Shown: positions 19,544-21,358 of the stretch, in pieces | Numbering within the stretch: the first letter of the stretch is position 1 | How the letters are laid out: every line of letters starts with the position of its first letter | Position numbers and translations under genes: made by a program | Notes under the pieces: generated by a model | What the model was told of the DNA's origin: nothing | Databases searched by the model: none | What the model saw: only the letters and a program-made list of their open reading frames with translations | From: Thermoleophilia bacterium | Lineage (GTDB): Bacteria > Actinomycetota > Thermoleophilia > Solirubrobacterales > 70-9 | DNA: 41,265 bases | NCBI GenBank assembly: GCA_016649905.1 | Contig: JAENWU010000010.1 | Location: 1-41,265 of the forward strand | Direction: 5' to 3'

Positions 19544-19656
19544 CTGGCTGGCTCGTCGTCTCGTCGTGGAGCACCGTCATCGTCCGCCTAGGTTAGCCGC
19601 CCTGCCTGCCTGCAAACGTCCGCGGGACGCCTGGTAGTCTTCTCCCAACATAAGCG

Positions 19657-19786
19657 CCACATCTAGAGGGGTGGAGGGACTGGCCCAGTGAAGCCCCGGC
19701 AACCATCTTCGGATCGATTCGATTCGAGGGGAGGTGCCAACTCCAGCAGGTCACCGTTGTTGTTGTGCGGGGCCTGGAAGATGTGG
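19657..19786 (+). promoter_or_regulatory. SAM-I (S-box) riboswitch aptamer
   Basis: Core agaggGGTGGAGGGACTGGCCCaGTGAAGCCCcGGCAACC...GGTGCCAACTCCAGCAGG; P1 closes perfectly: ccacatct (19657-19664) with agatgtgg (19779-19786). Confidence 0.96.
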
Positions 19787-19803
19787 GGGACGTCCGATCC
19801 GGA

Positions 19804-19834
19804 CCTCTGCCCCACAAACGGCGGAGGTTTTTTT
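19804..19834 (+). terminator. Riboswitch expression-platform intrinsic terminator
   Basis: cctctgcc (19804-19811) pairs with ggcggagg (19820-19827), followed by 7 T; tgtgggg (19782-19788) / ccccaca (19810-19816) form a competing antiterminator. Confidence 0.9.
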
Positions 19835-19852
19835 GATGGAAGTGAGGATCGG

Positions 19853-21085
19853 ATGTCAATCGAGAATCTGAAGTGCAAGGAGTGCGGGTCGACCTATGAG
19901 CTCGGCGCCAGCTACTTCTGCGAAAACTGTTTCGGCCCGCTGGAGGTCAACTACGACTTCTCGGGGCTGGACCCGCACGAGGTCAAACGGCAGATCCAGG
20001 CCGGTTCACAGGGGATCTGGCGCTACAGCGACTTCCTCCCCTTCGAGGGGCGCCCCGGCGACCCGCTGGAGCCGGGCCTGACGCCGCTGCTGCGCGCCGA
20101 CCGGCTGGCCGAGCGGCTCGGGATCGAGGCGGAGCTGTGGCTCAAGAACGACGCCGCCAACCCGACCCACTCCTTCAAGGACCGGGTCGTCGCGGTCGCG
20201 GTCGCCAAAGCCCAGGAGCTCGGCTTCGACACCGTCGCCTGCGCGTCCACCGGCAACCTCGCCAACGCGGTCGCCGCCCACGCGGCCGCCGCGGGTCTCG
20301 CCTCCTACGTTTTCGTCCCCGCCAACCTCGAGGAGCAAAAGCTGCTTGCGACCGGCGTCTACGGGACCAACCTGGTCGGCGTCCGCGGCAACTACGACGA
20401 CGTCAACCGGCTCTGCACGCAGCTGGCGGAGACGCGGCCGTGGGCCTTCGTCAACGTCAACCTGCGCCCCTACTACGCCGAGGGCTCGAAGACGCTCGCC
20501 TACGAGACCGCCGAGCAGCTCGGCTGGGAACTGCCCGACCGGGTCGTCTGCCCGATCGCCTCGGGTTCGTTGTTCACCAAACTCGGCCGTGGCTTCCAGG
20601 AGTGGCTCGACCTCGGGCTCGTCAGCGGCAAGCAGCCGGTCTTCAACGGCGCCCAGGCCGAGGGCTGCAGCCCGGTCGCGACCGCCTTCGCCGAAGGTTG
20701 GGACGTCTGCAAGCCGCAGAAGCCGGAGACGATCGCCAAAAGCCTCGCGATCGGCGACCCCGCCGACGGTCCCTACGCTGTCGAGCAGGCGCGGAGCAGC
20801 GGCGGCGGCATCGACGCTGTCACCGACCAGGAGATCCGCGAGGGGATCAAGCTGCTGGCCGAAACCACCGGCATCTTCACCGAGACCGCCGGCGGCGTCA
20901 CCGTCGGCGTCCTCAAGAAGCTCGCCGAACGCGGCGAGTTGGCCGCCGACGAACGCGTCGTCGTCTACCTCACCGGCGAGGGCCTGAAGACCCTCGACGC
21001 CACCCGCGATACGTTCCAGATGCACGAGATCGACCCCAACCTCGATAGCTTCGAGGCCGAGTTCCGCCGGGAGGTAAGCGTCTAG
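19853..21085 (+). CDS. thrC: Threonine synthase-family PLP enzyme with N-terminal zinc ribbon
   Basis: CKECG...CENCFGPLEV zinc ribbon; PLP lysine motif NPTHSFKDR; ACASTGNLANAVAAHAA. Symbol reflects family; substrate uncertain, see findings. Confidence 0.9.
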   Translation: MSIENLKCKECGSTYELGASYFCENCFGPLEVNYDFSGLDPHEVKRQIQAGSQGIWRYSDFLPFEGRPGDPLEPGLTPLLRADRLAERLGIEAELWLKNDAANPTHSFKDRVVAVAVAKAQELGFDTVACASTGNLANAVAAHAAAAGLASYVFVPANLEEQKLLATGVYGTNLVGVRGNYDDVNRLCTQLAETRPWAFVNVNLRPYYAEGSKTLAYETAEQLGWELPDRVVCPIASGSLFTKLGRGFQEWLDLGLVSGKQPVFNGAQAEGCSPVATAFAEGWDVCKPQKPETIAKSLAIGDPADGPYAVEQARSSGGGIDAVTDQEIREGIKLLAETTGIFTETAGGVTVGVLKKLAERGELAADERVVVYLTGEGLKTLDATRDTFQMHEIDPNLDSFEAEFRREVSV

Positions 21086-21358
21086 ATGGCAATCACGGTG
21101 AAGATCCCGACCCAGTTGCGCGCCGCGACCGGCGGCGAATCGGAGGTCGAGGTGAGCGGCGGCACCGTTGGCGAGGCGCTCGACGCCGTCTTCGATGCCC
21201 ACACCGAACTGCGCGAGCGGATCACCCAGGACGGCGACCTGCGCCGCTTCGTCAACGTCTACGTCTCCGGCGAGGACATCCGCTTCCAGCAGGGCCTCGA
21301 CACCGCGATCAACGACGGCGACGAGGTCACGATCCTGCCCGCCGTCGCCGGCGGCTGA
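21086..21358 (+). CDS. ThiS/MoaD/CysO-family ubiquitin-like sulfur carrier protein
   Basis: 90 aa ending VTILPAVAGG with diglycine tail; resembles mycobacterial CysO; starts immediately after the upstream stop codon. Confidence 0.93.
   Translation: MAITVKIPTQLRAATGGESEVEVSGGTVGEALDAVFDAHTELRERITQDGDLRRFVNVYVSGEDIRFQQGLDTAINDGDEVTILPAVAGG

What the first reader, a model, noticed from the sequence alone, without database searches (positions are those of the whole stretch)
19657..21358. SAM-I riboswitch driving a threonine synthase-like enzyme plus CysO-like sulfur carrier: candidate protein-thiocarboxylate homocysteine pathway
Seen: a SAM-I aptamer followed by a PLP enzyme of the threonine synthase family and, with no gap between stop and start, a 90-aa ubiquitin-like protein ending AVAGG. 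Known: SAM-I riboswitches normally turn on methionine/SAM genes when SAM is low. Mycobacterial CysM uses O-phosphoserine plus the thiocarboxylate of CysO to make cysteine, and Wolinella uses a protein thiocarboxylate for homocysteine. Inference: boosting true threonine synthase during SAM starvation would drain O-phosphohomoserine away from methionine, so this enzyme may instead use O-phosphohomoserine and the sulfur-carrier thiocarboxylate to make homocysteine.
Basis: partly seen in the sequence, partly recalled or inferred. Interest (0 to 1): 0.87.

Follow-up and report, generated by a model that had tools for sequence, protein, structure and literature searches.

The report
SAM-riboswitch MetM–MetO homocysteine synthase operon
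This bacterium probably makes the methionine precursor homocysteine with an enzyme that looks like a threonine synthase plus a small sulfur-carrying protein, switched off by a SAM-sensing RNA; the route is already known from Streptomyces (2024), but here it appears to be the lineage's main or only route and it is routinely mislabelled as threonine synthase.

Summary
A SAM-I aptamer (80.5 bits) with a terminator and a mutually exclusive antiterminator precedes a 410-aa ThrC-family PLP enzyme, followed without a gap by a 90-aa CysO-like carrier ending AVAGG. The genome has an ordinary hom-thrC-thrB locus elsewhere, and MetH, but no MetX, MetA, Cys_Met_Meta_PP enzyme (MetB/C/Y/Z) or HcyBio (DUF39). 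All 41 genomes searched in the order carry the gene, 40 with SAM-I upstream. The protein falls outside the characterised threonine synthases and has replaced residues invariant in them. The idea is not new: Hasebe et al. 2024 described this system in Streptomyces albulus (SAM riboswitch, MetM, MetO). Added here: it is the apparent sole homocysteine route in most of the order (Solirubrobacterales); the metM-metO linkage holds in six phyla; a residue signature separates MetM from ThrC; the curated ThrC model mislabels MetM; and a genome matching Acidimicrobium ferrooxidans in length, a species listed in 2018 as having no known homocysteine pathway, carries SAM-I–metM–metO. Enzyme activity was not tested. 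Verdict: new member of a known kind.

The parts
19656..19787 (+). SAM-I riboswitch aptamer (P1 = 19656-19663 with 19780-19787)
   Evidence: RF00162 80.5 bits, gathering 44.4
19782..19816 (+). Antiterminator: UGUGGGG 19782-19788 (3' strand of P1) pairs with CCCCACA 19810-19816; excludes both P1 and the terminator
   Evidence: Fold of the nascent leader, -19.9 kcal/mol; similar pairing possible in most of 30 relatives, weaker in some
19801..19834 (+). Intrinsic terminator of the riboswitch expression platform (11-bp stem, T7 run)
   Evidence: terminator found in 26 of 30 relatives
19853..21085 (+). metM-like gene: ThrC-family PLP enzyme with N-terminal CxxC...CxxC zinc-ribbon-like motif, predicted O-phosphohomoserine-dependent homocysteine synthase
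21086..21358 (+). metO-like gene: ThiS/CysO-type sulfur carrier, C-terminus PAVAGG

Best explanation
This is a SAM-I-controlled metM-metO operon of the kind described in Streptomyces. When SAM is low, the 3' strand of aptamer helix P1 pairs with CCCCACA in the leader, blocks the terminator and lets metM-metO be transcribed. MetO is adenylated and sulfurated at its C-terminal glycine, probably by the rhodanese-MoeB fusion encoded on contig C30. MetM, using PLP, takes O-phosphohomoserine (made by Hom and ThrB), eliminates phosphate and adds the MetO thiocarboxylate at C-gamma. The adduct is released as homocysteine, perhaps by a Mec-type JAMM protease, and MetH methylates it to methionine. Shown here by sequence: riboswitch and expression platform, operon structure, orthology group, absence of other homocysteine routes, and presence of Hom, ThrB, ThrC, MetH, MoeZ-like, CysO/CysM-like and Mec-like genes. 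Inferred from the Streptomyces precedent and from CysO/CysM: the substrate, the thiocarboxylate donor, and the roles of MoeZ and Mec.
For: SAM-I with terminator and antiterminator. SAM-I upstream of the gene in 40 of 41 genomes of the order. Carrier gene adjacent in 30/30 order loci and downstream in 79 of 80 named loci from Actinomycetota, Cyanobacteriota, Chloroflexota, Nitrospirota, Nitrospinota and Acidobacteriota. Second, ordinary hom-thrC-thrB locus. No MetX, MetA, PF01053 enzyme or HcyBio, but MetH present; the same absences in single-contig relatives G014, G026 and G028. Clade separate from five characterised ThrCs at 100/100. About 30 catalytic-domain positions fixed differently in MetM and ThrC. 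MoeZ-like, CysO-like, CysM-like and Mec-like genes on C30. Published precedent. Anti-correlation with MetX in the phylum: 11 of 149 genomes have both, about 20 expected, Fisher p=0.0016 (not corrected for phylogeny).
Against: No assay. The genome is 92% complete in 212 contigs, so an absence is weaker here than in the closed relatives. The S. albulus MetM sequence could not be fetched; the Streptomyces-like loci L053-L055 come from unnamed 8-10 Mb Actinomycetota genomes. A Microcystis protein of the same group showed threonine synthase and threonine deaminase activity in vitro, and its authors doubted a full MetM role in vivo (PMC12172450). Eleven sampled genomes carry both metM and metX, so the pathway is not exclusive everywhere. 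The MetX anti-correlation may partly reflect shared ancestry.
Confidence: 0.9

Rival explanations
1. A second, SAM-repressed true threonine synthase; the carrier gene is a bystander or has another role.
For: TIGR00260 thrC passes its curated cut-off; nearest solved folds are threonine synthases; a Microcystis member of the group has threonine synthase activity in vitro (PMC12172450).
Against: A normal ThrC sits in hom-thrC-thrB. ThrC-invariant residues are replaced. The carrier gene is linked across six phyla. No other homocysteine source was found.
Confidence: 0.05
2. An O-phosphohomoserine sulfhydrylase that uses free sulfide in vivo; MetO is only a helper.
For: Many PLP sulfhydrylases accept free sulfide (established knowledge). 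The protein-thiocarboxylate step cannot be seen from sequence.
Against: Strict metM-metO linkage with an intact A-x-A-G-G motif at or near the C-terminus in all 125 metO-like proteins compared; a MoeZ-like activating enzyme is present; MetO was reported as sulfur donor in Streptomyces (own knowledge of Hasebe et al. 2024; the paper is cited).
Confidence: 0.04
3. A CysM-like cysteine synthase using O-phosphoserine and the MetO thiocarboxylate.
For: MetO is 52% identical to M. tuberculosis CysO, and CysM uses CysO-COSH (PMC3227635).
Against: A separate CysM-like, CysO-like, MoeZ-like and Mec-like set is on C30. The enzyme is ThrC-type, not CysM-type. The SAM-I switch points to methionine.
Confidence: 0.01

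Closest known systems
MetM/MetO methionine route of Streptomyces albulus (Hasebe et al. 2024, AEM 90:e01247-24)
   Same: ThrC-like enzyme, adjacent sulfur carrier, upstream SAM riboswitch (as reported in PMC12172450)
   Different: Different actinobacterial lineage (Solirubrobacterales); about 56-58% identity to the Streptomyces-like homologues; activity not tested here
CysO/CysM/MoeZ/Mec cysteine pathway of Mycobacterium tuberculosis
   Same: Carrier of the CysO type (52% identity to 3dwg_C), phosphorylated amino acid as acceptor, PLP enzyme
   Different: Enzyme is ThrC-type, acceptor would be O-phosphohomoserine, product homocysteine; a separate CysO/CysM-like set exists on C30
Protein-thiocarboxylate methionine pathway of Wolinella succinogenes (Krishnamoorthy & Begley 2011)
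   Same: Thiocarboxylated carrier as sulfur donor for homocysteine
   Different: Wolinella uses a MetY-type (PF01053) enzyme and O-acetylhomoserine (own knowledge); this genome has no PF01053 enzyme over cut-off
Threonine synthase ThrC (PDB 6cgq, 2zsj, 1uim, 2d1f, 1e5x)
   Same: Fold, catalytic Lys in SFKDR, presumably the same substrate
   Different: Separate clade, conserved residues replaced, N-terminal zinc-ribbon-like motif not in the matched parts of these ThrCs, own thrC elsewhere

Membership tests
SAM-I riboswitch (RF00162) | Covariance-model score above gathering threshold over the full aptamer | tested here: met
   80.5 vs 44.4 bits, positions 1-108
SAM-I riboswitch (RF00162) | Expression platform with mutually exclusive P1/antiterminator/terminator | tested here: met
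   By predicted folds; SAM response itself not measured
MetM/MetO system | ThrC-family enzyme gene next to a sulfur-carrier gene ending in GG | tested here: met
MetM/MetO system | Upstream SAM riboswitch (as in S. albulus) | tested here: met
MetM/MetO system | Phylogenetic grouping with the characterised S. albulus MetM | tested here: inconclusive
MetM/MetO system | Conversion of O-phosphohomoserine to homocysteine with thiocarboxylated MetO | not testable with these tools
   needs enzyme assay
Threonine synthase (ThrC) | Curated model TIGR00260 above cut-off | tested here: met
   281.9 vs 167.1 bits
Threonine synthase (ThrC) | Clusters with characterised threonine synthases | tested here: not met
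   100/100 split from five PDB ThrCs and the hom-operon ThrCs
Threonine synthase (ThrC) | Conserved ThrC residues (Thermus numbering T88, S155, R160, Q164, G187-N188) | tested here: not met
   Replaced by L136, N203, Y208, S212, A236-S237
CysM (O-phosphoserine sulfhydrylase) | CysK/CysM-type sequence | tested here: not met
   cysKM only 38.8 bits vs cut-off 344; a separate CysM-like protein is on C30
ThiS/CysO-type sulfur carrier | Beta-grasp ThiS family with exposed C-terminal Gly-Gly | tested here: met
   PF02597 60.8 bits; best solved relatives 4n6e_B and CysO 3dwg_C; ends AVAGG

The most novel reading that the evidence does not exclude
MetM/MetO is a widespread, possibly ancient homocysteine pathway that is the sole route in most of this order and in other organisms with a published gap, including Acidimicrobium ferrooxidans. 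It is hidden because the standard ThrC model names MetM a threonine synthase. In this genome two carriers (MetO and the C30 CysO-like protein) would share one MoeZ-like activator and one Mec-like protease, coupling methionine and cysteine synthesis.
Probability: 0.6. Interest if true: 0.55.

Novelty: new member of a known kind. Interest (0 to 1): 0.4.

Why it matters
Many genomes of Actinomycetota and other phyla would be scored as methionine auxotrophs because they lack MetX, MetA and MetB/Y/Z and because MetM is annotated as threonine synthase. Recognising the SAM-I–metM–metO signature and the residue differences would correct this. It also makes a published puzzle testable: Price et al. 2018 listed A. 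ferrooxidans as lacking every homocysteine pathway then known, and the genome that matches it in length carries this operon.

Tried and rejected
The first coordinates used for metM were off by one base, so searches failed. Hasebe et al. 2024 could not be read; its content is taken from PMC12172450 and from memory. Literature searches for an earlier report of SAM-I with a thrC-like and moaD-like gene outside Streptomyces found none in the held library. Iyer et al. 2006 links ThiS/MoaD genes to cysteine synthase; no threonine synthase link was found in it by term search. A plasmid search found one 11.9-Mb Nonomuraea record labelled as a plasmid, with SAM-I upstream of metM. Considered and rejected: true second threonine synthase, and CysM-like cysteine synthase (see rivals). 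The AlphaFold model (mean pLDDT 87.7) confirms the ThrC fold but does not separate MetM from ThrC function.

Full report
OBSERVATION. The window holds a SAM-I aptamer at 19656-19787 (+), 80.5 bits over the full Rfam model. It is followed by an ORF whose likely start is the ATG at 19853 (410 aa, stop at 21083-21085), and directly by a 90-aa ORF at 21086-21358 ending TILPAVAGG. The first protein is a PALP/ThrC-family PLP enzyme. The second is a ThiS-family protein whose closest solved relatives are 4n6e_B (a ThiS/MoaD family protein) and M. tuberculosis CysO, 3dwg_C.

RIBOSWITCH. Between the aptamer and the start codon lies an 11-bp hairpin with a T run, part of the minimum-energy fold. Before the terminator's 3' arm is made, the 3' strand of helix P1 (UGUGGGG, 19782-19788) pairs with CCCCACA (19810-19816), -19.9 kcal/mol. 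P1, terminator and antiterminator are mutually exclusive in the way expected of a transcription-terminating S-box: SAM present = off. A terminator was found in 26 of 30 relatives, and an antiterminator-type pairing is possible in most of them, weaker in some. The control mechanism is inferred from these folds; it was not measured.

GENOME CONTEXT. The genome (92% complete, 212 contigs) has three close ThrC-family proteins. Contig C28 carries homoserine dehydrogenase, ThrC (301 bits to TIGR00260) and homoserine kinase in a row: this is the ordinary threonine synthase. Contig C116 has a third paralogue downstream of leuS, found in the genus and one other genome. The genome lacks MetX (best 26 bits), MetA, any PF01053 enzyme above cut-off (best 21 bits, while all 14 control genomes ring) and HcyBio, but has MetH. 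Over the 41 genomes of the order searched, 37 lack MetX, 32 lack a strong PF01053 match, and all lack MetA and HcyBio. The single-contig genomes G014, G026 and G028 lack all of them, so fragmentation does not explain the absence. All 41 carry the window-type gene, and 40 have a SAM-I upstream of it; the exception, G005, has its copy at a contig edge. Named contigs identical in length to those of genus members are Solirubrobacterales / Actinomycetota MAGs, which places the window in Solirubrobacterales.

PARTNERS. On C30 lie a rhodanese-MoeB fusion (524 bits to PRK08762), a CysO-like protein (90 aa, ends PAMAGG), a CysM-like protein and a JAMM protease of the Mec/desampylase type. This resembles the mycobacterial cysteine system, in which MoeZ makes the CysO thiocarboxylate, CysM adds it to O-phosphoserine and Mec releases cysteine (PMC3227635). 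MetO is 53% identical to the C30 carrier and 52% to CysO. It is plausible, not shown, that the MoeZ-like and Mec-like enzymes serve both carriers. Of 125 metO-like proteins, 21 end 1-6 residues beyond GG, which would need trimming.

EVOLUTION. In a sample of 149 Actinomycetota, 56 have a close metM-like gene (E<=1e-80) and 53 have MetX; 11 have both against about 20 expected (Fisher p=0.0016; phylogeny not corrected). Of 20 distant loci examined, 12 have SAM-I, all upstream of the gene. A scan of named genomes gave 80 loci from Actinomycetota, Cyanobacteriota, Chloroflexota, Nitrospirota, Nitrospinota and Acidobacteriota; 79 have a metO-like gene downstream. SAM-I is also upstream in an Acidobacteria MAG and a Chloroflexi MAG, but was not found in the cyanobacterial loci scanned, in line with the Microcystis report. 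In a maximum-likelihood tree, five structurally characterised ThrCs and the hom-operon ThrCs form one side of a 100/100 split, with MetM-type proteins and the C116 paralogues on the other. Two long branches (Arabidopsis ThrC and C116) make their exact positions unsure.

RESIDUES. Within the catalytic domain about 30 positions are at least 90% fixed in MetM and differently fixed in ThrC. In Thermus ThrC numbering these include T88 to L136, S155 to N203, R160 to Y208, Q164 to S212 and the GNAG loop (187-190) to ASGS. From memory, not checked here, R160, S155 and N188 contact the substrate's phosphate in the Thermus enzyme. MetM also has four conserved N-terminal cysteines (C8, C11, C23, C26). 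The AlphaFold model (mean pLDDT 87.7) matches threonine synthases best.

COMPARISON WITH THE KNOWN. Hasebe et al. 2024 (AEM 90:e01247-24) reported MetM, a ThrC-like homocysteine synthase, with MetO as sulfur carrier in Streptomyces. The paper is not held; PMC12172450 states that MetM is a novel homocysteine synthase, that the S. albulus metM has an upstream SAM riboswitch, that a metO-like sulfur carrier gene lies next to the Microcystis homologue, and that homologues occur in cyanobacteria. That MetO-COSH is the sulfur donor is my own recollection of the abstract. The finding is therefore a new member of a known kind. A caution comes from the same paper: the Microcystis homologue made threonine and 2-ketobutyrate in vitro, and the authors doubted a full MetM role there.

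A PUBLISHED GAP. Price et al. 2018 (PMC5764234) named A. ferrooxidans DSM 10331 among organisms with neither the traditional, the DUF39 nor the Wolinella-type thiocarboxylate pathway. It carries SAM-I, metM (55% identity) and metO ending PAVAGG and shows no MetX match. In L062 the aptamer runs up to the ribosome-binding region, so control there may be translational. The identification of G119 rests on genome length and phylum only. I do not know whether Hasebe et al. already noted this case.

ANNOTATION. MetM exceeds the curated threonine synthase cut-off (281.9 vs 167.1), so annotation by that model will call it threonine synthase.

LIMITS.

Noticed in passing
L002:1462-2748 (G000 contig C116): A third ThrC-like protein (429 aa, zinc-ribbon-like N-terminus), found in the genus and one other genome, downstream of leuS, with no SAM-I found nearby and no sulfur carrier gene noticed next to it; it shares many but not all MetM-type residues. 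Function unknown.
   Followed up: partly
L167:4902-10559 (G000 contig C30): Rhodanese-MoeB fusion, CysO-like, CysM-like and JAMM protease genes near one another, resembling the mycobacterial CysO/CysM cysteine system, with an ABC transporter set on the other strand between them.
   Followed up: partly
L062 (G119, 2,158,157 bp): Probable Acidimicrobium ferrooxidans genome with SAM-I–metM–metO; the aptamer reaches the ribosome-binding region, suggesting translational rather than transcriptional control.
   Followed up: partly
L187 (NZ_LT559118.1): An 11.85-Mb Nonomuraea gerenzanensis record labelled 'plasmid I' carries metM with SAM-I upstream; the size suggests a chromosome.
   Followed up: partly
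G012-G016, G020, G023, G024, G032: Nine relatives have one or two further SAM-I matches away from metM (two of them, in G012 and G024, just below cut-off); the genes they control were not examined.
   Followed up: no
L113: Pseudanabaena biceps has a metM-like gene but no metO-like gene detected in the fetched locus, the one exception of 80.
   Followed up: no
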